The notes under the pieces: model-generated
What the model was told of the DNA's origin: nothing
Databases searched by the model: none
The model's input: the letters and a program-made list of their open reading frames with translations, nothing else
Translations under genes and position numbers: made by a program
From: Halanaerobium kushneri
Lineage (GTDB): Bacteria; Bacillota; Halanaerobiia; Halanaerobiales; Halanaerobiaceae
Direction: 5' to 3'
Assembly: GCF_900156285.1 (NCBI RefSeq)
Contig: NZ_FTNC01000003.1
Span: 62,001 to 126,000, forward strand
DNA: 64,000 nucleotides
In this document: piece by piece, positions 29,532 through 44,460 of the stretch
Layout of the letters: every line of letters begins with the position of its first letter
Numbering within the stretch: position 1 is the stretch's first letter

Positions 29532-29561
29532 TTTGCGTTAACGCAAAAAAAGTGGTATAAT
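29532..29561 (+). promoter_or_regulatory. Promoter with overlapping palindromic operator
   Basis: The 16-bp perfect palindrome TTTGCGTTAACGCAAA (29532-29547) covers the -35 TTGCGT (29533-29538). A 17-base spacer leads to perfect TATAAT (29556-29561). A dimeric repressor bound here would block transcription into the 29832-30825 operon. No cognate regulator can be assigned. Confidence 0.72.
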
Positions 29562-29563
29562 AT

Positions 29564-29674
29564 AAAAAAGGTTAGAGATACCACCTCTAACCTTACTCTT
29601 GCTTGACGGCTTTACTAAGAGAAAGCCCAAGCATATACCGGAAATGTTTCTCGGTACAAATATATTATTATGTT
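29564..29674 (-). ncRNA. Candidate antisense small RNA in the 5' leader of the E2-like operon
   Basis: On the minus strand, a promoter (TTGCAA at 29705-29710, 18-base spacer, TACAAT complementary to 29681-29686) leads into ~110 bases. These end in a textbook terminator: GGTTAGAG/CTCTAACC stem (29570-29592, 7-base loop) followed by six U (complement of 29564-29569). Inside, a GCTTG-GGCTTT / AAAGCC-CAAGC hairpin (29601-29631) and a TACCG/CGGTA hairpin (29636-29656) add structure. The RNA is fully complementary to the leader of the + transcript from the 29533 promoter, so it is placed to act as an antisense regulator. No ORF is seen in it. Confidence 0.5.
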
Positions 29675-29680
29675 GTATAT

Positions 29681-29710
29681 ATTGTAACATAAAAGGTGTA
29701 GGTGTTGCAA
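29681..29710 (-). promoter_or_regulatory. Minus-strand promoter for the antisense RNA
   Basis: Read on the minus strand: TTGCAA, 18 bases, TACAAT (or TTACAA at 17). It drives transcription toward the 29570 hairpin. Confidence 0.5.
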
Positions 29711-29831
29711 GAAGTTTCGCTCTTAGAGAGAGGAGATTAATTCTTATTCAGTGATGTCTCAAGTCAGAAATAAAGAATGAGGTCTGAGCCGAGACAGTTC
29801 CTTAAATATTTTAAAAAGGAGTTTTTAATAA

Positions 29832-29984
29832 ATGGATAAGAAGAGAAAAAACAAAGGCAATACAGGTAATAACGGTAACGATAAAGGCAAAGGTAACCGA
29901 AATCAAGAAAAAAACAAGAATAAAGACAAGAAGCAAGAAAGAAGCAGAAAGCCAGGAAAATCACATGCAGTATTCTATGAATAA
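29832..29984 (+). CDS. Small basic peptide (50 aa) preceding the E2-like protein
   Basis: ATG 29832 follows a strong SD (AAAAAGGAG, 29814-29822; 9 bases). The product is a low-complexity Lys/Asn/Gly-rich, highly charged 50-residue peptide starting MDKKRKNKGN and ending KPGKSHAVFYE. It overlaps the downstream gene by 20 bases, which suggests translational coupling. It may be a leader peptide, or a substrate or modifier for the E2-like protein. The SD strength and overlap argue that it is translated. Similar sequences are unknown to me. Confidence 0.55.
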   Translation: MDKKRKNKGNTGNNGNDKGKGNRNQEKNKNKDKKQERSRKPGKSHAVFYE

Positions 29985-30825
29985 GAGTGTTGTGGATGAT
30001 TTAAAAACCAAATTCGGCCCCGTTGAATTTCATACGGGGCCTTTTAAAACCTTTCCTGGAAACTGGTTTTTATTAGAGTTAAAGCCTATGCCGTTAAATA
30101 GCGAGATAAAAGATGTAGCTTCTGATATATGTAGAAATGGTAGCGTAAAGGTTAATAAGGGAAAAGTAAAACATCATTTGGATAATTGTGATCGAGAGAG
30201 TCATAGTTTTTCATCTAAATTGAGACATGTTGAAAAAATTATTAGTGATTTAAAAGATGAAAAATATTATATTGCTGTTCACCCTGGAGATAAAAATATA
30301 TTAAATGGCCAACCTATTGCTATTTCAATTAAGCCAGAAATTAATTATATTAAATATCCCGATCACCCTCATTTAAATACTGGGGCAAAGGATGTTTCAA
30401 TGGAGGGCTTCAATTTTCATCTTCCGGATTCCTTATGTTATACAGATAATCCTAAGCAATTAGGAACAGACATGGTAGATAGAATGTTATTTGCTTTTGA
30501 TTTGATTACTATATGGTTATTTAGACATCAGATTTGGTTAAAAACTAGAGAAGTTTATGGAAAAGGTACCTGGATAGGACCTGAAGCAGCAAGTTTTCCA
30601 CCGTATATTTATCCAAAGATATTAAATCCTCTTGGTAAGTGTAGATGTGGAAAGAACAAAAAATATGGAAATTGTCATAGACCTTATGATATAAAAAAGC
30701 TGAGGAAAAAGGCTAAACAAAATAATAGAATTAATTTAAAGCATCAGACGTATGGGTCATGGAAAAAAAATATTTATAACCCTCAAAGAAAATCGCTAAA
30801 GGTACTAAAAAATATACTGCTCTAA
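29965..30825 (+). CDS. E2-like (ubiquitin-conjugating-fold) protein with SEC-C-type zinc tail
   Basis: 286 aa. Residues ~125-210 follow the layout of prokaryotic E2-family proteins: INYIKYPDHPHLN (HPH motif, 134-136), a short insert, then LPDSLCYTDNP with a candidate catalytic Cys158, and a helix IWLFRHQIWLKTREVYG followed by GTWIGPEAA (W-x-G-x-E). Residues 226-238 (CRCGKNKKYGNCH) are a SEC-C-like zinc knuckle, followed by a basic tail. Start at ATG 29965: AGGA 29954-29957 is 7 bases upstream. No E1 or JAB gene is adjacent, so if it conjugates anything the system is minimal or depends on other loci. The E2 call is by motif only. Confidence 0.5.
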   Translation: MQYSMNKSVVDDLKTKFGPVEFHTGPFKTFPGNWFLLELKPMPLNSEIKDVASDICRNGSVKVNKGKVKHHLDNCDRESHSFSSKLRHVEKIISDLKDEKYYIAVHPGDKNILNGQPIAISIKPEINYIKYPDHPHLNTGAKDVSMEGFNFHLPDSLCYTDNPKQLGTDMVDRMLFAFDLITIWLFRHQIWLKTREVYGKGTWIGPEAASFPPYIYPKILNPLGKCRCGKNKKYGNCHRPYDIKKLRKKAKQNNRINLKHQTYGSWKKNIYNPQRKSLKVLKNILL

Positions 30826-30922
30826 ATTTTAAGGCATTAAAGCATTGACATTCACAACATGTTTTAATGCCTTATTATTTTATAATTGAATTTCAACAAA
30901 AAATGTTGATATGGAGGAAGTA

Positions 30923-31372
30923 ATGAGTGATACAAGTTTTAAAAATATCAAATTAAATCTTGGCCATGATTTTGAAAAGAATACAAAGGGCTCTATTATT
31001 GGTGCTGATCAGTATAAACCTGACATTTCAATAATTAATAGTAAAGAAAAAGTTGTTTGTGTTATAGAATCATCAAGTACAGGCGATAGAAAAGTTCATA
31101 TTGGAGAAATGTTTCAAAGTCACAAATTTTATTGTGATCAAGAAACAACGGGTGACCTTATAATATCTTTAGCTGGTAATAGTAAAAATTCTCCTAGGCC
31201 TGATACATCTTATAAATATTTAAAGCCTTATTTTGACTTTATTAAAAAAGAATCCAAATTTGGGTTAAAAAGAGTATATTTAATTGAACAAGATGATTTC
31301 ATGAAACTTCAAAATGGTGGTGTAAAATTATTAGGTGAAAAATTCATTAATAAATGCACAACACTAGATTAG
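30923..31372 (+). CDS. PD-(D/E)XK-like nuclease-fold protein (uncertain)
   Basis: 149 aa from ATG 30923 (GGAGG 30913-30917, 5 bases). YKPDISIINSKEKVVCVIES has the D...(13)...E spacing of a restriction-endonuclease-like core, although the usual Lys after Glu is Ser-Ser (ESSS), so activity is doubtful. LIISLAGNSKNSPRPDTSYK and a final beta-strand (KRVYLIEQDD) fit the fold. It lies ~100 bases after the E2-like gene and may be its partner or an independent unit. Confidence 0.45.
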   Translation: MSDTSFKNIKLNLGHDFEKNTKGSIIGADQYKPDISIINSKEKVVCVIESSSTGDRKVHIGEMFQSHKFYCDQETTGDLIISLAGNSKNSPRPDTSYKYLKPYFDFIKKESKFGLKRVYLIEQDDFMKLQNGGVKLLGEKFINKCTTLD

Positions 31373-32970: not shown

Positions 32971-35004
32971 TTGAAATGTAAATATAACAGCAATTCAATC
33001 AGAAAATTTCTTAGTAATATAGAAGGTGATCTTTTGCCAATAAGTAGAATAAAAATTAAAAATTGTATTTCTTTAAAAGACATAGAAATAAATTTAAAGA
33101 ATTCTAATTGTTTACTTGGCGAAAACGGTACTGGTAAGAGCAATTTATTAAAAACTATTTATTATTATTATAAAAAGCTAACTGATGAAAAAGTTGATTT
33201 CACAATACGAGATAAAGAAAATTCATATAATCAGTATTCTGAAATTAAAGTTACTTATGATCTTAGTAATTTCAAGAACATATTATTAAATAATTTTTTT
33301 AGGAATGAGTTTTCCTATTCACATAGTTATTTAAATAAGATATCTAAATTTATTAATCAGAATGCAACAGATAATAAAATTACTGTTGTCATGAAAAAAT
33401 ATAAAAAAGAATATCCAACATGGAATTATAGTTATGAAGAAAGAAAAATGTTACAAAAACTTTTTCCTGTCTATTTTTTACACTGTAAAAATATCAATGA
33501 GAAAAAATGGATGGAATTATGGAGTATGATTAATGATCTAAATAAAATTTCAATGGATTCAAAAAATAAGATTAATTCAACCCTGGAAACTATGTTGAAC
33601 GAAGATGAAATAAATAAACAGTTCCAATTTATAAGAGAGGAATTTAAAAAGAGTAATATTAGTGTTGAAGAATTTAATATAAAAGAGGTTTTTAATCATT
33701 TATACCAATTATATCTTGGCGGAAGGAAGTTTAATATAGATGATAGAGAACTTGATTTTTCTTCTGAAGGAATTACTTCTTATAATTATATGACTTTCTT
33801 TTTGAGTCTGGCAAAACGTATTTCTGATAAAAAGTTAAAAGAACCCTTATTAATTTTTGATGAACCTGAGTTAAATCTTCATCCTTATTATATTGATCAA
33901 TTAAATTATAAAATGGTGGATGTATGTAATGAAAAATTAAGATTAGTTTTAGCTACACATTCACCAAGGGTAATAAAAAATATTATTCGTTCAGAAATTG
34001 ATTATAATCTATATCATTTTAATTTTGAAAATAAATATTCTGATATGAAAAGAATGAAGCCTATCTTGAAAAACACTAAAAGTTATCATAAAATAACAGT
34101 TACAGAAGCTAGTTTTTATTTTTCAAAAGCTATTGTGTTTCTAGAAGGAGTTACTGAAAGAGAGTTATTTACAAATAAAAATATTTTAGAATTATTTCCA
34201 AAACTAAGAAAAGTAAATTTCTACCACAATCTATCAGATTATTCGGCAGCTAGAGTTCTTTCTCCTCGAGAGAGAGGTTATAAAACACCACATTTATTTT
34301 TAGTTGACCTTGATAAAATATTAAATTATTCATATAAAAATAAAAGATTTTCTAAAAGTAAAAGTGATAAGTTTGTAAATCCTTTAACAAATGTTAATAT
34401 AATAAAAAAAGAAAAGTTTTTATATGGAAAAAAACGTAAAGAGTTTTTGACTTTAAGAAACCAAATAGATAATGAATTAAATAAAGATTATAACTTTGAT
34501 TTAAAATGGGGAAAAGGTGCTAATAATTATTTGAATTTAAAAAATTTAATTAAAGATTATTGTATGAGGTATAATGTTATTGTAGCTATGAATACACTTG
34601 AAGATATAATAATTAATCAGGAAAACATTTCTTTTTTTAAAGGTTGGGCTTTAGATTATAAAAACAATTTAAATATAGCGAATAAATTTCAGATTGATGA
34701 TTTAACACTTTTTAGGTTATTGTTTAGTGGTAAATTAAGTAATTTACAAACTCTAGATAATAAGAAAAAACAAATAAAAAAAGTTTATAATCAATCAAAT
34801 AAAAGTGTATTGGTTGATTATTATAAAAAAATTAATGAGTTGTCAGTTAATAAAACAGAATGGATAACAGAATTAATGGATTATTTTTTTGAAGAAAATA
34901 TTGATAAAGAGAAAACACTATATGATAAAAAAACAAATTTTAAAAATTATTTTCCAGAGTTATTTTATATTATTGAAAAAATAGAATCTTTGTTAGTAAG
35001 ATAG
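32971..35004 (+). CDS. Retron effector: OLD-like AAA ATPase with TOPRIM domain
   Basis: 677 aa. N-terminal ABC/SMC-like ATPase: Walker A GENGTGKS (50-57), Walker B LLIFDEPE (293-300), then LNLHP and the ATHSP switch (328-332). The C-terminal half has TOPRIM-type motifs: IVFLEGVTERELF (Glu392) and LFLVDLDK (D446-x-D448). This is the OLD-nuclease architecture that accompanies type I-B (Eco8-like) retrons. The stop codon lies inside the a1 arm of the retron RNA and the reverse transcriptase follows, so the three parts form one unit. TTG 32971 has SD GGGGAG. It should act as the toxic or nuclease arm in phage defence. Confidence 0.82.
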   Translation: MKCKYNSNSIRKFLSNIEGDLLPISRIKIKNCISLKDIEINLKNSNCLLGENGTGKSNLLKTIYYYYKKLTDEKVDFTIRDKENSYNQYSEIKVTYDLSNFKNILLNNFFRNEFSYSHSYLNKISKFINQNATDNKITVVMKKYKKEYPTWNYSYEERKMLQKLFPVYFLHCKNINEKKWMELWSMINDLNKISMDSKNKINSTLETMLNEDEINKQFQFIREEFKKSNISVEEFNIKEVFNHLYQLYLGGRKFNIDDRELDFSSEGITSYNYMTFFLSLAKRISDKKLKEPLLIFDEPELNLHPYYIDQLNYKMVDVCNEKLRLVLATHSPRVIKNIIRSEIDYNLYHFNFENKYSDMKRMKPILKNTKSYHKITVTEASFYFSKAIVFLEGVTERELFTNKNILELFPKLRKVNFYHNLSDYSAARVLSPRERGYKTPHLFLVDLDKILNYSYKNKRFSKSKSDKFVNPLTNVNIIKKEKFLYGKKRKEFLTLRNQIDNELNKDYNFDLKWGKGANNYLNLKNLIKDYCMRYNVIVAMNTLEDIIINQENISFFKGWALDYKNNLNIANKFQIDDLTLFRLLFSGKLSNLQTLDNKKKQIKKVYNQSNKSVLVDYYKKINELSVNKTEWITELMDYFFEENIDKEKTLYDKKTNFKNYFPELFYIIEKIESLLVR

Positions 35005-35246
35005 TAGGATAAGTAGTAATTAAACAGTTAAACTGTTTATCCCTGATGTAAATAAACATATATATTATAAGTAGCTTTTATCAAGGAGAGTGGAATACTT
35101 CTTGAGGTAGGGTTAACTGTAAAATCCAGGGGGTTTTTAATACAATTAAGTTTCATCTTCAAATTACCAAGTTTATATTTTCAGATTTGCCTCAATTAAC
35201 TATTGGCGCAGAGCGAGGCTTGAGATGGTACTTATCCTATTATCTT
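34998..35246 (+). ncRNA. Retron msr-msd RNA
   Basis: The segment between effector and reverse transcriptase is bounded by an inverted repeat. TAGGATAAGTA (35005-35015) pairs perfectly with TACTTATCCTA (35229-35239), and pairing extends outward to 34998/35246, an 18-bp stem with one G-U. This is the a1/a2 stem expected for a retron transcript of ~249 nt. Inside are a short msr-like hairpin (AAACAG..CTGTTT, 35022-35038) and GC-containing stems near the 3' end (GCCTC 35189-35193 with GAGGC 35215-35219) that could form the msd. I cannot place the branch guanosine or the cDNA ends. T6 follows a2. Confidence 0.75.
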
Positions 35247-35269
35247 TTTTATAGTTTTTATTTGAGGTG

Positions 35270-36289
35270 ATGTATATCAAGATTTATAATTTAAATTATT
35301 TTTTAAAGAAAATATTAGAGATTTCAGAAGAAAAGTTAAAGAAAACTCTAACTAATAAAAAGAATGCATATTCTAAATATAAGATACCTAAGAAAAATGG
35401 TTATAGGAAAATACATTCTTTAAAAAGTGGGGATCTTTCTCATCTTCAATCTAATTTAAAGAAAAATTTTTTGGATAATATACCAATAGCAGATAATGTT
35501 TATGGATTTGTAGAAGGTTATGGTTATAAAGACTTTTTAATCCCTCATACTTATAAAAAATATTATTTGCGATTAGATATCAAAAATTTTTTTGAGTCTA
35601 TCAAAACAAACAAATTGGAAATAATATTTGATTATTATATAACCGCTAGTAATGATGAAGAAAAAGATAAGATTTTAGATTATTTAATATCAATAATTTC
35701 TTTAAATGATTATCTTCCACAAGGAGCTATAACCTCACCTGCAACTTCAAATATATTTTTTAGAGAATTAGATATAAGAATTCAAAAATACTGTAAAAAA
35801 CTTGGTTTTGATTACAGCAGATATGCTGATGATATTTTAATTTCTTCTAATAACGATAAGTTGCCAAAAGATTTTGTGATAAAAGCGGTAAATAAAATAG
35901 TTTCTGATAGAAAATTAAAATTAAATTATAAGAAAATAATTCGTGAGAAAAACGAAATTTCTTTAAATGGTTTTGTAGTGGGAAAGGGAATACGTTTATC
36001 AAGAAATAGGAGATATGATATTTCTAAAATAAATTTTTTATTTAAAAGTAATAAATCTGTCTCCCAATATAAATTTGTTGAATTATTAAATAATGCCAAT
36101 GGTGGTTTTAAATATAGATATAAAAATAATAATGGCAAGTTTTTTTCTGATATTGATGATTTAATTAATTACTTAGCTGGTTATAGGTCATTTTTAATTA
36201 ACTGGATACCTGATGAAGATAATAAATATTATAATAAACACATTAATTTACTAAATGATATTGAAGAAATTCTTTTATGGTTAAATTAG
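35270..36289 (+). CDS. Retron reverse transcriptase
   Basis: 339 aa. RT palm motifs: YYLRLDIKNFFESI (Asp ~103), YLPQGAITSPATSNIFFRE (148-166), SRYADDILIS (catalytic YADD 185-188) and LNGFVVGKGIRLSRNRR at 232-248, corresponding to the retron VTG region. The N-terminal YKIPKKNGYRKIHS is the usual RT0/RT1 lead. It copies part of the upstream msr-msd RNA into branched msDNA. The start is slightly unclear: ATG 35270 sits only 2-3 bases after GAGG (35264-35267), an unusually short SD spacing that would hold expression low. Confidence 0.9.
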   Translation: MYIKIYNLNYFLKKILEISEEKLKKTLTNKKNAYSKYKIPKKNGYRKIHSLKSGDLSHLQSNLKKNFLDNIPIADNVYGFVEGYGYKDFLIPHTYKKYYLRLDIKNFFESIKTNKLEIIFDYYITASNDEEKDKILDYLISIISLNDYLPQGAITSPATSNIFFRELDIRIQKYCKKLGFDYSRYADDILISSNNDKLPKDFVIKAVNKIVSDRKLKLNYKKIIREKNEISLNGFVVGKGIRLSRNRRYDISKINFLFKSNKSVSQYKFVELLNNANGGFKYRYKNNNGKFFSDIDDLINYLAGYRSFLINWIPDEDNKYYNKHINLLNDIEEILLWLN

Positions 36290-36947: not shown

Positions 36948-39900
36948 ATGATTAGAGATTATAAGCAACAGCTTGAATATCTTACAGATCAATTACAAGT
37001 TTTGAACAATATAACTTCTTCTATTTCTGATGAAGAAAAATATGCAAAAAATGCTGATATTCAATGGGGAGCCTCATTATTTATGGCCCATTTATTAGCT
37101 GAGTCTAAGTTGACTTTACCTTTTTTAGACCATAAAACAGTGCAGCAACTTTTGGAGCAATATAATGAAGAACATCAAGGTGTAGTTGATTTTGAATATT
37201 TAACTGAAAGTTATTCGTTTAGATTTGTTTTAAACCAAGTTGAAATACCTAGTTCAATTATTAACCAAATTCATAATAAAAATCAAGAAGAAAAAACAGA
37301 GCTTAGTTTTTTAAGATTGCTATATAACAAAAAACATGGAAGAGAAGAAAAAATAGAACTGGGATTATACATTTCTAAGGAAAGAGTAAAGCAGTTGAGA
37401 AAAACACATGTTAAAGTTTATCCTAATACACCTTCTATTAATGAAATGAAAGGATCAGAAATAATTGCCGAGTTTGATAAAGAAAATTTCAAATTAAAAA
37501 GAGGTTATGATAAATCTTTCTGGAGATTTTTAGAAGATAAAGCTGCCGCTTTGTATTGGGAAGAGATATTAGCTGGCAGCCAAAAGAGTGATACTGTTAG
37601 TTTACAGCAGTGGTTAAAAAAAGTAAGGTTATTTTTTTCCTGGAGTGATGCTCCCAGGCATATGTCTCCCGAAAATAGGAACAAATTTCTTACTGCTGCG
37701 GTAGAACTTATTCTTAATGAAGATGATTTATTAGGGTGGGAGCAGGAATTACTAAGATTAAGATTGGAAACTGACTTTTTAGTGGAAAATAATTTTGTAT
37801 TAGATGTTAATCTTCCTGATGATAAGAATAATATATTGAGAGTTTTTAAATGGTGGGGAAAACCTCCTATAAAGGGACTGGTAATGAATCTGCATGGTGG
37901 TTCCCGCCAGCAGTTAAATTCGCTTATTTACGCAGTTATAAAAAATGATGAAAGAGATGTTGCTTCAGAAGATTTTAACAAATGGACAATAGAGCTTTTA
38001 CAAAATAGTAACTCTAGACCATATCTTACCTATATTGTTGCTTATATAGTAAGAAATAGTTGTCCAGAAGCAATTCCGGGGCTATTATTGAATAGAGAAA
38101 CTATTTCTCTTGGTCTGAATTTACTTTTTGAATTAGATTTTTCAGGGAAGTTTTATTCTTTGCCCAATTCTGTTCGCAGTAAAAAAATTGCAGAAATTAA
38201 GAATAATTTATGGCGTGAAGGAATAGAACTTGCTTTTTCTCCTTTGCTTAAAGTTGAAAAAGATGATCAGGTATTTAAGGAAAAGGTTATAGCTGAAGTT
38301 TTGTTAACTCTTGCCAGAAAAATAGAAAAAGATAAAAAGACCAGTCATGATTGGGAGATAAAGAATAATTTGCTGCAGGAATTATTAAATTATTTGGCTG
38401 ATTTAAGGCTGAACATTAAAGAGTTTGCTTCAGATAATTTAATTAATCCGGGAATTATAAATACGATGGCTTTGAAGTTGATTAATAATTGGAAGAAAGA
38501 ATTGGGAAAGGGTAGAAAACAAGCTTTTGGGGGATTACCCCGGGCTGAACTGAAATTAATGTTTTGGTTATTTGATCTAGTCAGAAATACTACTACTGAA
38601 GAATGGCAGACGGTAAAAGCTTTTAATAATAAAGAAAAATCTTTAGTTTTACAAACTATAGCTGATACTATAATCAATATTTATACTTGTGAATTAAAAA
38701 GAGAGATATTTACAAGTGATGATCAGGAGTTGGTTGTTACCTGGACCTCAAGACAGCCAGATAATTTAAAATTACCGTGGGAGAGTCTATTTATTTATTT
38801 AAGACAGGATAACAGATTAAATGAAATTTTAATACCAATAAATATTAGGAAACGACTTAAGAAGATTTATCCAATACCCGATGGTGCTACTAAAAAAGCC
38901 AGCAGAGTGATTGCTGATTCAGCAGAGGGTAAATTAAAACGTAAACAAGCCTGGGTTTATAAAATACGATTACATTTATCTATTTTAATTAATACGCAAA
39001 AAAAAGTATCTATTAATGAAGTTGGGAAAAACACAATTAAGAGTGATTTAGAAAAAACTATTGTAAATATCTTAGCTAATTTTACTATTGATGATTTGTG
39101 TTCAGGTAAAGCTGACATTTTTGATTCATTTTATGAGCGAGATCTTTTTACAGAAAATGAAGAACTATTTCCTCTTTTAGCTAAGATGTTAACTGGATTT
39201 AGTAAAGAAAATTATGATAAGGCTGTTAATAAAATATTATCCGGGACAGATGATCCAGTGAGGTTTTTAATTCTTTATCAGCAAGTAATTGATGAAGCCA
39301 GTCAGCAAAAAATAAGGAAAAAAATTTTTGATATGAATTTAAATGAATACTTAGAGGAGCAGTATTGGCTGCCGGAGATGGAGAAAGCATTAATTAATTC
39401 TGTTAATGCTGGATATACAGAAATTGCGGAGGAGATTATTAATTATGGGGATAAAATATTAAGTCAACATCCCAAACAGCTTGAATGGCAAAAATTAGTA
39501 TACCGAATTAAATTAAACTTAGCTTTTCAAAAAGGGGATCTAGAAGGACTAGAGAATATTTCGATACCTACAGAAAAAGAAATGGTTGCTCCTGAAGAAG
39601 AATTTGAAGCTACCAAAGATTACTATAAAGCCCTAGTATTATTAAAAAACAAACCAGGAAAGGCTTATAAAATATTTGATCAACTTTTGTATTCAAAATA
39701 CCTGAAATCACAGATAGCTGTTAATCGTTTTGCAGCCACAATTAGAATGGCTGAACAGGAAGAAGAATTAAAAAAACAAATGAATCTTTATCGTCAGGCA
39801 TTGAATGAATGGGGGATAATTAAAAAAAGCTTAAATGAAAATGAGTTACATACTATTGCTAAACAAGTCGCTTATAATAAATTGCTATGTTATGATTATC

Positions 39901-40844
39901 TTAAAATGAATAAAGAGTTTGATCAAATATGGGATGAGTTGCCCAATCAAATTAAAGTAGAGATTGATTTTTTAGAAGTGGCTGTGAATAACTTTTTAGA
40001 CCGGGGCCTATATGATAGAACAAAAAAACTAATTGAGGAAAAAGAAGTTTATTATTTTGGTATAGATAATAAACCTTCTAATAAATTTCAAAAACTAAAA
40101 GAACAGCTAACTAATTATAAAAGAAAACATTTATCCCCACAAGTGGTAGATGAAATAGCATTTAAACCAGATTTAAGACAATATAGAACTTATTATCAAG
40201 ATATTTTAGGTTTTAATCCTGAAGAGATAGCAAAAGTAGTTAGTGCAAAAGCACTTAATAAATTTTTACTGGATAAAATTATCTGGGCCGGAAGACAATT
40301 GTTAGAGAGAAATGGAGTTTTTGCTGACTCAAAGGAAGAAAATAAATATAATGATATTATGACTTCTATTTTAAAAGCTGTTTTCTCTGCCTGGAATTGG
40401 CAGGTAACAGATCAGCCTCGAGGAGGTCGTTCAGCAACTCATCAACAGAGGAAAACTTCACAAGGAGGTGTGGGTTCTCGAGATATTATATTAAGTAATC
40501 AATTTAGCCAAAAGATGGCAATTGTTGAGGCTTTCAGGCTGAAATACAATTATCTTGAAAAAGGTGTAATTGAAGAACATTTAACTAAAATTTTTAAGTA
40601 TAATTCGATTGGATTAGCTAGATCTTATATAATTGTTTATTCAGAAGCTGGTAAATTTAGTGGTTTATGGGATAAATATATTAATTATCTTTCAAAGATA
40701 AATTTTGAGTTTGCAATAATTCAACCTGTGGACGATTTAACTGAAGATTATAATTTGAGTGGTGTTAAAGTGGCGAAAGCTGTCCACGACCGGGAAGGAA
40801 ATAAAGAAGAAATTTATCATATATTTTTAAACTTTGGAAGCTAA
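36948..40844 (+). CDS. Large helical protein with C-terminal PD-(D/E)XK-like domain, putative defence protein
   Basis: 1298 aa, no transmembrane segment, mostly helical and HEAT/TPR-like across residues ~1-1100. The C-terminal ~150 residues have the restriction-like core: GGVGSRDIILSN with Asp1179 and MAIVEAFRLKYN with Glu1194 (E-x-F/R where E-x-K is usual), preceded by an AWNW-type strand. I do not know a named family for it. ATG 36948 follows a GGGAG SD. It lies directly upstream of the ietAS-like pair but is separated by 173 bases with a promoter, so it may be a separate system or a third component. Confidence 0.5.
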   Translation: MIRDYKQQLEYLTDQLQVLNNITSSISDEEKYAKNADIQWGASLFMAHLLAESKLTLPFLDHKTVQQLLEQYNEEHQGVVDFEYLTESYSFRFVLNQVEIPSSIINQIHNKNQEEKTELSFLRLLYNKKHGREEKIELGLYISKERVKQLRKTHVKVYPNTPSINEMKGSEIIAEFDKENFKLKRGYDKSFWRFLEDKAAALYWEEILAGSQKSDTVSLQQWLKKVRLFFSWSDAPRHMSPENRNKFLTAAVELILNEDDLLGWEQELLRLRLETDFLVENNFVLDVNLPDDKNNILRVFKWWGKPPIKGLVMNLHGGSRQQLNSLIYAVIKNDERDVASEDFNKWTIELLQNSNSRPYLTYIVAYIVRNSCPEAIPGLLLNRETISLGLNLLFELDFSGKFYSLPNSVRSKKIAEIKNNLWREGIELAFSPLLKVEKDDQVFKEKVIAEVLLTLARKIEKDKKTSHDWEIKNNLLQELLNYLADLRLNIKEFASDNLINPGIINTMALKLINNWKKELGKGRKQAFGGLPRAELKLMFWLFDLVRNTTTEEWQTVKAFNNKEKSLVLQTIADTIINIYTCELKREIFTSDDQELVVTWTSRQPDNLKLPWESLFIYLRQDNRLNEILIPINIRKRLKKIYPIPDGATKKASRVIADSAEGKLKRKQAWVYKIRLHLSILINTQKKVSINEVGKNTIKSDLEKTIVNILANFTIDDLCSGKADIFDSFYERDLFTENEELFPLLAKMLTGFSKENYDKAVNKILSGTDDPVRFLILYQQVIDEASQQKIRKKIFDMNLNEYLEEQYWLPEMEKALINSVNAGYTEIAEEIINYGDKILSQHPKQLEWQKLVYRIKLNLAFQKGDLEGLENISIPTEKEMVAPEEEFEATKDYYKALVLLKNKPGKAYKIFDQLLYSKYLKSQIAVNRFAATIRMAEQEEELKKQMNLYRQALNEWGIIKKSLNENELHTIAKQVAYNKLLCYDYLKMNKEFDQIWDELPNQIKVEIDFLEVAVNNFLDRGLYDRTKKLIEEKEVYYFGIDNKPSNKFQKLKEQLTNYKRKHLSPQVVDEIAFKPDLRQYRTYYQDILGFNPEEIAKVVSAKALNKFLLDKIIWAGRQLLERNGVFADSKEENKYNDIMTSILKAVFSAWNWQVTDQPRGGRSATHQQRKTSQGGVGSRDIILSNQFSQKMAIVEAFRLKYNYLEKGVIEEHLTKIFKYNSIGLARSYIIVYSEAGKFSGLWDKYINYLSKINFEFAIIQPVDDLTEDYNLSGVKVAKAVHDREGNKEEIYHIFLNFGS

Positions 40845-41017: not shown

Positions 41018-41974
41018 ATGGCAACAGGAGAACAACTCAAAAGTATAATAAAAACACACTTTAATGGGGATAAAGAACAGTTTTCTACAGTTGCTTTACG
41101 GATAGCTGCTCATGAAGCTAAAAATGGGCATCAGATAATTGCTAGAGATATTCGTTCTTTAGTTGATGAATATAAAAATCGACCTCAGAAGGTAGTAAGA
41201 TTAAAGAGAGAATATAAAGGCCTTGTTGAAGAAGTTAATGAAAAACATTATTTATCAGAGTTAATAGTTAATGATGATATTAATAATAAAATTAAAAGAA
41301 TTGTAAAAGAATATAAAAAAAGAGATAAGCTATTAAAACATGGCTTGGATAATAGAAGAAAAATATTATTAAAAGGTCCTCCAGGAACCGGTAAAACATA
41401 TACATCTAGTGTTATTGCAAAAGAATTAAATTTGTCATTATTCACTGTTCAATTAGATAAATTGGTGACAAAATATATGGGAGAAACTAGTGCAAAACTG
41501 AGAATAATTTTTGATATGATTAAAGATATTGAAGCAGTATTTTTATTTGATGAATTTGATGCAATAGGTTATAAAAGATCTTTGGATAATGATGTTGGAG
41601 AAATGAGGCGTGTTATAAACTCTTTTTTACAGTTTTTAGAAAATGATAAATCTAAAAGTATAATTCTAGCAGCAACTAATCACCCAGCATTATTAGATGA
41701 TGCTCTTTTCAGAAGATTTGATGATATAATTTCTTATAAATTGCCAACTGAAAAGGAAATCTATCGTTTAATCAAAAATAGAATTGCTTCTTTTTCTAGA
41801 GGTGATTTCTTAATAGAGGATATTGTAAAATTAGCTAAAGGTTTAAGTCATTCAGAAATAACAAAAGCCTGTGATGATGCTATTAAAGAAACTATATTAA
41901 ATGATAAGGATTTAATAAACAAAGCCTTACTAGAGAGAATGATAAAAGAGAAAAAAACTTCATATGAAAATTGA
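41018..41974 (+). CDS. AAA+ ATPase, IetA-like
   Basis: 318 aa. Walker A GPPGTGKT (120-127), Walker B VFLFDEF (174-180), sensor 1 in ILAATNHPALLDDALFRRFD with the arginine finger. This is the small stand-alone AAA+ with an N-terminal helical lead seen in ietAS modules (AAA ATPase plus subtilisin protease), first described in plasmid incompatibility and later listed among antiphage systems. The stop TGA is followed at once by the SD and start of the protease gene, so the two are co-translated. Confidence 0.8.
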   Translation: MATGEQLKSIIKTHFNGDKEQFSTVALRIAAHEAKNGHQIIARDIRSLVDEYKNRPQKVVRLKREYKGLVEEVNEKHYLSELIVNDDINNKIKRIVKEYKKRDKLLKHGLDNRRKILLKGPPGTGKTYTSSVIAKELNLSLFTVQLDKLVTKYMGETSAKLRIIFDMIKDIEAVFLFDEFDAIGYKRSLDNDVGEMRRVINSFLQFLENDKSKSIILAATNHPALLDDALFRRFDDIISYKLPTEKEIYRLIKNRIASFSRGDFLIEDIVKLAKGLSHSEITKACDDAIKETILNDKDLINKALLERMIKEKKTSYEN

Positions 41975-41988
41975 GGTGTCAAATAAAA

Positions 41989-44460
41989 ATGGAGAATAAA
42001 AGAAATATATTTATTGATTTGTCTCCAGACGTAATTGACTTCACACCAAAAAGCACACCAGTCGATAACAAATTTCCTACAAAACAGGTTTCACAGCATG
42101 GTAACAAACTAGTTGATAAATTAAAATCAATCTGGAGAGAAGCCGAGAAAATAAAAACTGAAAGAGAGAATAAGTATTTTAAATCTCAACAGGGAACATA
42201 TATAGAATTTACAGTTGATGATTCACTTAAATATAAAGTCAAAAGTTTAGAAGATTTGAAGAAAAAAATAAGAATACTTAATATTAAGCATTTAAAAGAT
42301 AGTAACAAAATGCAAGTTTTAGTTTTTATTCCCGACGGTAAAGAGGGACATTTTTTAGGTAAAATAAAAAAATATTTAGATCCTGATCAGTTAACGAGTA
42401 AAGGTAAAAGAAGTAATCAAGACTTAATTAATTGTATTGAAGATATTAAGTTGGCAATTTTACAGTCGTTCTGGCAGAGTGAGATTGAGTGGATCCCCGC
42501 TGAAGATAAATTATGGTGTGAAATTTGGATTTATGATAATGGTGAAGATATCGAAGATGAATTTATAAAACTAGCTGAATCTCTAGATATTCAGGTTGGT
42601 AAGGGTGTTATTAATTTTCCTGAAAGAAAAGTATTTTCAGTTTATCTTAATAACAAGCAGATTCTAGATTTAATAGAAGAGGGACCAGTAATTGCTGAAA
42701 TAAGAAGGAAATCATTGACTGCTGATTTCTTTACAGGTCTAGAAAATAGGGAACAGATTGAGTGGGTAGATGATTTGTTGTTGCGATTAAATGTGAACAA
42801 AAGGGCCCAAAATAGTATTTGTCTACTTGACACGGGCTTGAATTCAGGATATCCGCTAATAGATCCAGTTTGTAATAATAACTGTCAGAGTTATAAATTA
42901 GATTGGGGGAGTTATGATCATTCTGGTCATGGAACAATGATGGCTGGATTAGCAATTTATAATGATTTACAACAAGCAATAAATATGGATAAACAATTAG
43001 ACATTAATCATTTTATTGAGTCAATTAAAATTCTTCCTCCAGATGGAGAAAATAATGAAGAATTATATGGTTATATACTTGAAGAAGCAATTTACAAAGC
43101 AGAAATAGAAAACCCTGAGTTAAGTCGAGTATTTTGTATGGCGGTAACAGCAAATAATTATATTTTAAATACTGGTGCTCCATCATCCTGGTCTGCAGCA
43201 GTAGATGCAGTTACTTCTGGTTTTTATGATAATACTAAAAGACTATTATTTGTTTCCTCAGGCAATATAAGCGGAAAAAGTAATTATTCAAATTATCCCA
43301 AGAGTAATTTCACTGAAGTAGTTGAAGAACCAGGTCAGGCCTGGAATGCAATTACAGTAGGTGCATTTACTAATAAAAAAGATATCATTGATCCTGATTA
43401 TAGTGATTATCAAGCATTAGCTCCGGTTGGTGGACTTTCTCCATTCAGTAAGACTTCTCGTAGTTGGGATAATGATTGGGCAATTAAACCTGAAATATTA
43501 ATGGAAGGTGGAAATTTGGCTGTAGATAATATATCCGCTGAAGAACCATTTTTTTCTAGCTGTGAAGATCTTTCGGAACTAACTACAAATTATAAATATA
43601 CTGAAAATCATTTTGCTTCAATAAATATGACAAGTGCAGCAACTGCTAAAGCTTCCTGGTTTGCTTCGCAATTAATGGCTGAGTATCCAGATGTCTGGCC
43701 GGAAACAATAAGAGCCCTAATTATTCATTCAGCAAAATGGACAGATAAAATGAAAGAACAGTTTTTAGATGGAGAACTTAAATCTGATTATTTAAAGTTA
43801 TTAAGAACCTGTGGTTATGGAGTTCCAAATTTAGAAAGAGCCAAATGGAGTTATGAGAATGCCGTTAACTTAGTAATTGAAGATGAAATTCAACCTTTTG
43901 AAAAAGGAGCAAGTAATTATCGTTCAAAAGAAATGAATTTATATAAAATACCTTGGCCAGAAGATATTTTACTATCATTAGGAGAAACAGAAGTAAATAT
44001 GAGAGTCACTTTATCTTATTTTATTGAACCAGGTCCGGGAGAAATAGGCTGGAAAGATAGATATAGATATCCTTCTGCTCTATTAAGATTTGATTTAAAA
44101 AGACCTGACGAAGATGAACAGACTTTTTTATCAAGAATAAATAAAAAAGAAAAAGATAAAAATGATAATTATAATAATACTACTACTGATAACTGGACAT
44201 TAGGTATGAATGCCAGAGATAAAGGTTCAATCCATTCTGATATATGGATTGGTACTGCAGCTGATCTTTCTCAAATGAATGAGATAGCAGTTTATCCGGC
44301 AAATGGCTGGTGGAAAACAAGAAGTTATTTAGGAAAGGCAGAAGAAAAGATGAGATACTCATTAGTAGTTTCATTAACTACTGAAAAAGAAGATCTTGAG
44401 TTATATACAGAAATTATTAACTTAATTGATATTACAGAAAAAATTGAAATTAAAGTTTAG
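41989..44460 (+). CDS. Subtilisin-like (S8) serine protease, IetS-like
   Basis: 823 aa. The catalytic triad is visible: Asp281 in CLLDTGLNSG, His314 in DHSGHGTMMAG, Ser549 in NMTSAATAKAS; oxyanion Asn426 in FVSSGNIS. There is a ~250-residue N-terminal domain before the protease and a ~200-residue beta-rich C-terminal domain (VNMRVTLSYFIEPGPGEIG). No signal peptide, so it acts inside the cell. Start at ATG 41989 (GAGGTG 10 bases upstream) rather than TTG 41971, which overlaps the ATPase stop. Likely held in check by, or fed by, the AAA+ partner. Confidence 0.83.
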   Translation: MENKRNIFIDLSPDVIDFTPKSTPVDNKFPTKQVSQHGNKLVDKLKSIWREAEKIKTERENKYFKSQQGTYIEFTVDDSLKYKVKSLEDLKKKIRILNIKHLKDSNKMQVLVFIPDGKEGHFLGKIKKYLDPDQLTSKGKRSNQDLINCIEDIKLAILQSFWQSEIEWIPAEDKLWCEIWIYDNGEDIEDEFIKLAESLDIQVGKGVINFPERKVFSVYLNNKQILDLIEEGPVIAEIRRKSLTADFFTGLENREQIEWVDDLLLRLNVNKRAQNSICLLDTGLNSGYPLIDPVCNNNCQSYKLDWGSYDHSGHGTMMAGLAIYNDLQQAINMDKQLDINHFIESIKILPPDGENNEELYGYILEEAIYKAEIENPELSRVFCMAVTANNYILNTGAPSSWSAAVDAVTSGFYDNTKRLLFVSSGNISGKSNYSNYPKSNFTEVVEEPGQAWNAITVGAFTNKKDIIDPDYSDYQALAPVGGLSPFSKTSRSWDNDWAIKPEILMEGGNLAVDNISAEEPFFSSCEDLSELTTNYKYTENHFASINMTSAATAKASWFASQLMAEYPDVWPETIRALIIHSAKWTDKMKEQFLDGELKSDYLKLLRTCGYGVPNLERAKWSYENAVNLVIEDEIQPFEKGASNYRSKEMNLYKIPWPEDILLSLGETEVNMRVTLSYFIEPGPGEIGWKDRYRYPSALLRFDLKRPDEDEQTFLSRINKKEKDKNDNYNNTTTDNWTLGMNARDKGSIHSDIWIGTAADLSQMNEIAVYPANGWWKTRSYLGKAEEKMRYSLVVSLTTEKEDLELYTEIINLIDITEKIEIKV

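What the first reader, a model, noticed from the sequence alone, without database searches (positions are those of the whole stretch)
29532..31372. Candidate minimal E2-like conjugation unit with a basic 50-aa peptide
The 29965 protein has HPH, a downstream SLCY cysteine and a W-x-G-x-E helix in the order of prokaryotic E2-family proteins, fused to a SEC-C-like zinc tail. It is translationally coupled to a Lys-rich 50-aa peptide and followed by a nuclease-like protein, with no E1, JAB or CD-NTase gene nearby. Known bacterial E2 systems (Bil, CBASS type II) have E1 and usually JAB partners. If real, this is an E1-less system and the peptide could be substrate, modifier or regulator.
Basis: partly seen in the sequence, partly recalled or inferred. 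Interest (0 to 1): 0.78.

Follow-up and report, generated by a model that had tools for sequence, protein, structure and literature searches.

The report
CBASS-like E2 gene with peptide partner
This is a rare two-gene bacterial unit in which an enzyme related to the ubiquitin-handling E2 proteins of phage defence is paired, in the slot normally held by a signalling enzyme, with a tiny unstructured protein that may be what the E2 attaches to other proteins.

Summary
The ORFs are as described. The 286-aa protein is a remote relative of the single-E2 enzymes of type II short CBASS: profile alignment beats all 150 column shuffles and lines up HPH, Cys158 and W-x-G with the CBASS motifs. Cys158 is kept in every relative that covers it. 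No usable structure model could be made.

E1-lessness is not new; type II short CBASS works with one E2. What is unusual is the missing CD-NTase. In window, L012, L008 and (nested in another frame) three alphaproteobacterial plasmids, a 47-61 aa polar, Cys-free peptide gene with its own ribosome-binding site meets the E2 gene, in the slot where CBASS keeps its CD-NTase. Among 249 control ORFs only these E2 genes had such an ORF. Relatives add HTH-ImmA regulators and, in Bacillota, a PIN nuclease.

Most likely the E2 processes or ligates the peptide without E1, as the Serratia CBASS E2 does with its cyclase (inferred, not shown). Rivals: toxin-antitoxin-like pair; translational coupling only. 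The downstream "nuclease" lies behind a terminator hairpin and has no support as a partner. Verdict: a real, sparse, apparently undescribed variant of the CBASS-E2 kind, beside an Eco8-type retron.

The parts
29533..29561 (+). possible promoter (TTGCGT, 17 nt, TATAAT)
   Evidence: read by eye; below the threshold of the promoter scan, so only a guess
29568..29830 (+). structured 5' leader of unknown role
   Evidence: folds better than shuffles (z = -3.8); no Rfam family; not conserved in relatives of the genome
29832..29984 (+). 50-aa basic, polar, Cys-free peptide ending SHAVFYE; candidate E2 substrate
   Evidence: SD-led ORF whose end overlaps the E2 start; positional counterparts in L012, L008, L013, L015, L016; similarity to the L012 peptide P = 0.003 by shuffling; absent before control ORFs
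29965..30825 (+). 286-aa E2-like protein with SEC-C-like zinc tail; start may be ATG 29977
   Evidence: profile match to CBASS E2s above all shuffles; Cys158, W184, W-x-G conserved
30436..30438 (+). codon of Cys158, predicted catalytic cysteine
   Evidence: invariant in all aligned relatives and CBASS E2; aligned with the CBASS E2 cysteine
30830..30874 (+). terminator-type hairpin closing the unit
   Evidence: z = -5.9 against shuffles

Best explanation
The unit is a two-gene module, peptide plus single E2, derived from or sister to the CBASS single-E2 (type II short) modules, in which a ~50-aa disordered peptide stands where the CD-NTase would be. SHOWN by sequence: both ORFs; relationship of the E2 to CBASS E2s; conservation of the cysteine; recurrence of the peptide gene at the E2 start in diverged loci; HTH-ImmA genes, and PIN genes in Bacillota, in relatives. 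INFERRED: the E2 cysteine takes the C-terminal part of the peptide as a thioester without an E1, as the lone CBASS E2 of Serratia does with the C-terminus of its cyclase, and passes it to lysines (on the Lys-rich peptide itself, on the E2, or on a target protein). Formation or removal of these conjugates would switch the system on or off. In relatives the effector would be the PIN nuclease and expression would be controlled by the HTH-ImmA protein, as CapH-CapP controls CBASS. In this window only peptide and E2 remain in the unit, so its effector or target is unknown.
For: E2 homology: window+L012 profile against ten CBASS E2s scores 33.0 (shuffle maximum 24.2 of 150), 27.3 without the SEC-C tail (maximum 21.2), six-member profile 34.0 (maximum 19.3), reversed controls fail; the CBASS set matches the solved Serratia E2 8HSB at 6.5e-35; L008 alone matches CBASS E2 models over the core (5.8e-8). 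Cys158 invariant. Peptide gene at the E2 start in window, L012, L008/L025 and nested in L013, L015, L016; 4 of 249 ORFs show such a partner and all 4 are these E2 genes. Same slot as the CD-NTase gene (within 10 nt of the E2 start in ten CBASS loci). HTH-ImmA in relatives and in CBASS operons. E1-free lone E2 in type II short CBASS: PMC11153139.
Against: No structure model. The histidine motif varies in the family. The C-termini of the peptides are not conserved, unlike the conserved terminal residue of cyclases in CBASS with full-length Cap2 and Cap3 (PMC10097602). L008's peptide cannot be linked to the others by sequence. No nuclease or regulator is in the window's own unit. Only about six intact loci are known.
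Confidence: 0.45

Rival explanations
1. Toxin-antitoxin-like or RosmerTA-like pair: the E2-like protein is a toxin or effector held in check non-covalently by the disordered peptide and, in relatives, by the HTH-ImmA protease-repressor. No conjugation chemistry is needed.
For: ImmA proteins of the relatives match RmrA, the antitoxin of RosmerTA (PMC10440598); small polar protein before a larger one, with overlap; PIN domains are classic toxins.
Against: The catalytic cysteine is conserved, which a purely binding role does not need; the window copy has no ImmA gene nearby; the peptide slot matches the CD-NTase slot.
Confidence: 0.25
2. The peptide is only a translated leader that couples translation to the E2 gene, or a precursor that the cysteine enzyme modifies and releases (RiPP-like); the E2-like enzyme acts on other host proteins.
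For: The peptides diverge fast in sequence; start-stop overlap is typical of coupling.
Against: Polar, Cys-free composition and length are kept over diverged loci; window-L012, L012-L013 and L013-L016 peptides are similar above shuffles; in the peptide frame 7 of 12 L013/L015 differences fall in third codon positions.
Confidence: 0.16
3. Not an E2: an unrelated cysteine/zinc protein whose resemblance to E2s is weak chance similarity.
For: No Pfam, NCBIfam, PHROG or PDB hit with the single sequence; PADLOC hit only to the SEC-C tail; no fold match.
Against: Profile test without the SEC-C tail still beats all 150 shuffles; L008 links the family to CBASS E2 models over the core.
Confidence: 0.1

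Closest known systems
Single E2 of type II short CBASS (Serratia marcescens E2, PDB 8HSB; Yan et al. 2024, doi 10.1038/s41564-024-01684-z)
   Same: Lone E2 without E1 or JAB; PH...C...W...WL...W-x-G order; E2 gene coupled to the gene before it; HTH-ImmA genes often nearby.
   Different: No CD-NTase and no cyclic-nucleotide effector; a 50-aa peptide gene stands in the CD-NTase slot; about 80 extra N-terminal residues.
CBASS E2 with SEC-C tail (PADLOC PDLC00865; L052, L053)
   Same: UBC-type core followed by a C-x-C...C-H tail.
   Different: L052/L053 lie between a CD-NTase and an HNH effector gene; the window gene does not.
Bil and other E1/E2/JAB/ubiquitin-like operons
   Same: E2-type enzyme in a defence setting.
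   Different: No E1, JAB or beta-grasp modifier here.
RosmerTA (RmrA/RmrT)
   Same: HTH-ImmA protein beside the unit in relatives.
   Different: No ImmA gene beside the window copy; the partner set (PIN, peptide, E2) is not described for RosmerTA in the paper read.
Pup and UBact (from general knowledge)
   Same: Short, polar, probably disordered polypeptide as candidate modifier.
   Different: No Gly-Gly-Glu/Gln end and no PafA-type ligase gene seen; E2-like enzyme instead.

Membership tests
E2 (UBC-fold) superfamily | Conserved catalytic cysteine | tested here: met
   Cys158 invariant in all aligned relatives and the CBASS row
E2 (UBC-fold) superfamily | HPN-type motif before the cysteine | tested here: inconclusive
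   HPH aligns with the PH motif of CBASS E2s but L008 and the alpha forms have other histidines
E2 (UBC-fold) superfamily | UBC fold | tested here: inconclusive
   pLDDT 36.5 and 49.6; no Foldseek match
E2 (UBC-fold) superfamily | Sequence-profile similarity to known E2s | tested here: met
   above all 150 shuffles with and without the SEC-C tail
CBASS type II short | CD-NTase gene next to the E2 | tested here: not met
   peptide gene instead; no CD-NTase match among the 29-36 kb proteins
CBASS type II short | Cap effector in the operon | tested here: not met
   terminator-type hairpin after the E2 gene; next ORF matches no family
Bil (E1, E2, JAB, ubiquitin-like) | E1, JAB and beta-grasp modifier genes | tested here: not met
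RosmerTA | ImmA-domain antitoxin paired with a toxin | tested here: inconclusive
   present in L012, L025, L026; divergent form in L013, L015, L016; absent beside the window copy
E1-independent conjugation as in the Serratia E2 | E2-substrate thioester and isopeptide products | not testable with these tools
   needs biochemistry and mass spectrometry

The most novel reading that the evidence does not exclude
A minimal E1-free protein-modification system in which one E2 enzyme conjugates a ~50-residue intrinsically disordered peptide, neither a beta-grasp ubiquitin-like protein nor a CD-NTase, as the signal of a defence response.
Probability: 0.3. Interest if true: 0.9.

Novelty: new variant of a known kind. 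Interest (0 to 1): 0.62.

Why it matters
If true, it would separate E2 chemistry from both E1 enzymes and folded modifiers, give one of the smallest conjugation units, and show how CBASS-type E2s can be rewired to another substrate. It would also give a simple two-gene system for testing how a lone E2 activates a C-terminus without an ATP-dependent E1.

Tried and rejected
Direct family look-ups (Pfam, NCBIfam, PHROGs, PDB) gave nothing for the window E2-like protein. The PADLOC E2 hit was rejected as evidence because it is the SEC-C tail and rings in nearly every genome. Two AlphaFold2 runs were too poor and the Foldseek search on the second was meaningless. The A4 profile hit to 8HSB was set aside because A4 held a CBASS row and the hit vanished without it; it was replaced by profile-profile comparison with shuffles. 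Viral contig scans found no relatives; one search returned only CBASS E2s. I first took the HPH for the strand motif before the cysteine (by analogy with L008) and then accepted the PH assignment; it stays inconclusive. Rfam found no RNA family for the leader. The 153-aa neighbour as effector of the unit was rejected for lack of any support and because of the terminator between. Paper searches found no description of this arrangement, but most subscription papers are not in that library.

Full report
What is there. The two ORFs and their motifs are at the stated places. The peptide gene (29832-29984) has a good ribosome-binding site; its end overlaps the start of the 286-aa ORF (ATG 29965, or ATG 29977 four codons later). 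A structured leader precedes it (z = -3.8) and a strong terminator-type hairpin follows the 286-aa gene (z = -5.9). Peptide and large protein are therefore probably one transcription unit, and the 153-aa ORF at 30911 probably another. The gene was not found in any other of the 100 related genomes searched, same genus included, so it was probably acquired horizontally. It lies in a defence-type region: an Eco8-type retron effector (NF038234, 8e-207) and a type I-B retron RT (2e-92) follow.

Relatives. Whole-genome searches found few homologues: L002/L012 (one locus of a Clostridiales MAG, 38% identity), the broken L003, and L004/L008 from two genomes of one genus. tblastn in plasmids gave L013 as a weak hit, which led to L015 and L016 in Alphaproteobacteria. 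A profile search added the fragment L021/L024, which does not reach the cysteine. In the alignments Cys158, Trp184, W203-x-G205 and the C-x-C...C tail recur; Cys158 is invariant, the CBASS E2 row included.

Is it an E2? The PADLOC E2 hit of the window protein is only to the SEC-C-like tail and is not diagnostic: the same model hits 361 of 398 genomes. Better evidence: (a) L008, a full-length relative, matches CBASS E2 models over the cysteine-to-W-x-G core (5.8e-8). (b) The pair window+L012 aligns with ten CBASS E2s, a set that matches the solved Serratia E2 8HSB at 6.5e-35, with score 33.0; 150 column-shuffled versions reach at most 24.2. Without the SEC-C tail it is 27.3 against 21.2, with six family members 34.0 against 19.3, and reversed controls fail. 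The alignment covers residues 115-208 of the 286 and puts Cys158 on the CBASS cysteine. (c) Two genomes carry CBASS loci with CD-NTase, E2 with SEC-C tail, and HNH effector, so an E2 plus SEC-C architecture is known from CBASS. Structure prediction was uninformative because the alignment is shallow. I take E2 homology as probable, not proven.

The peptide. In L012 a 50-aa polar ORF ends 2 nt before the E2 start; in L008/L025 a 61-aa Pro/Glu/His-rich ORF ends 3 nt before it; in L013, L015 and L016 a 47-48-aa ORF with a strong SD overlaps the E2 frame, and in L015 it is annotated (WP_157700430.1). All are Cys-free with few hydrophobic residues. Pairwise shuffles link window-L012 (P = 0.003), L012-L013 (0.001) and L013-L016 (none of 2000); L008 cannot be linked by sequence. 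As a control, of 249 ORFs of at least 150 aa in the window and fetched loci, only four have such an SD-led polar ORF at their start, and all four are these E2 genes (window, L012, and L008 with its longer copy L025). The composition cut-offs of that test were chosen after seeing the peptides. The peptide gene is thus very probably a real, fast-evolving companion.

Context. In L012 and L025 the order is HTH-ImmA, PIN, peptide, E2. L026 keeps HTH-ImmA and PIN with a truncated E2 and no peptide. In the alpha loci an XRE/ImmA-like gene is divergent. The ImmA proteins match RmrA, CapP and CapH models. Several single-E2 CBASS operons have HTH and ImmA genes in the corresponding place. In ten CBASS loci the CD-NTase gene ends within 10 nt of the E2 start; here the peptide gene has that slot. 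Most CD-NTase C-termini in those operons end in an (N)TF(F/Y)G-like or HNFHP-like stretch, and the window peptide ends SHAVFYE. Given its composition, a paired aromatic in the last six residues has P = 0.004, but this was noticed after the fact and the other peptides do not end this way, so it is a lead only.

Mechanism. [quoted passage not shown] Yan et al. 2024 (reference seen; content from my own knowledge of the abstract) report processing of the cyclase C-terminus, conjugation to a cysteine and ligation to lysine by a single E2. By slot and homology the peptide is the best candidate for the equivalent substrate here. This is inference. A toxin-antitoxin reading and a coupling-only reading stay open.

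Novelty. E1-less E2 action is known. A CD-NTase-less E2 unit with a disordered peptide was not found in the papers that could be searched. I class it as a new variant of the CBASS single-E2 kind.

Noticed in passing
window 32971-36289: Eco8-type retron: Toprim-ATPase effector (NF038234, 8e-207) followed by a type I-B retron RT (2e-92); gene order is effector before RT. Its msr-msd RNA was not located.
   Followed up: partly
window 36948-40844: 1298-aa ORF with no Pfam, NCBIfam or PADLOC match, inside the defence-type region.
   Followed up: no
window 41018-44460: AAA ATPase overlapping a subtilase (S8) gene, a pair of the kind seen in candidate defence systems.
   Followed up: no
window 30911-31372: 153-aa ORF with no homologue found in 100 related genomes, plasmids or phages; an orphan behind the terminator hairpin of the E2 unit.
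   Followed up: yes
L013 4461-5429, L015 4845-5828, L016 4743-5627: In the alpha loci the E2 frame is open far upstream through the peptide region, and L016 has no ATG, GTG or TTG between peptide and E2 core. The E2 may be a longer fusion with the peptide nested in another frame, or may need frameshifting.
   Followed up: partly
L026 6189-8442 versus L025 360-3542: Two genomes of one genus: one has HTH-ImmA, PIN, peptide and full E2; in the other the peptide and the E2 N-terminal part are gone together.
   Followed up: partly
L025 2211-2655 (L008 466-910): About 445 nt without a long ORF between PIN and peptide genes in an otherwise tight operon; possible RNA or lost gene.
   Followed up: no
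L013 3435-4367 (minus strand): ImmA-like protein whose HExxH-type motif seems altered (LLEEYWHILSGH), so it may be inactive as a protease (by eye).
   Followed up: no
PADLOC model PDLC00865: This 'E2' model rings in 361 of 398 genomes of the phylum, mostly through its C-terminal SEC-C-like part, so weak hits to it should not be called E2.
   Followed up: yes
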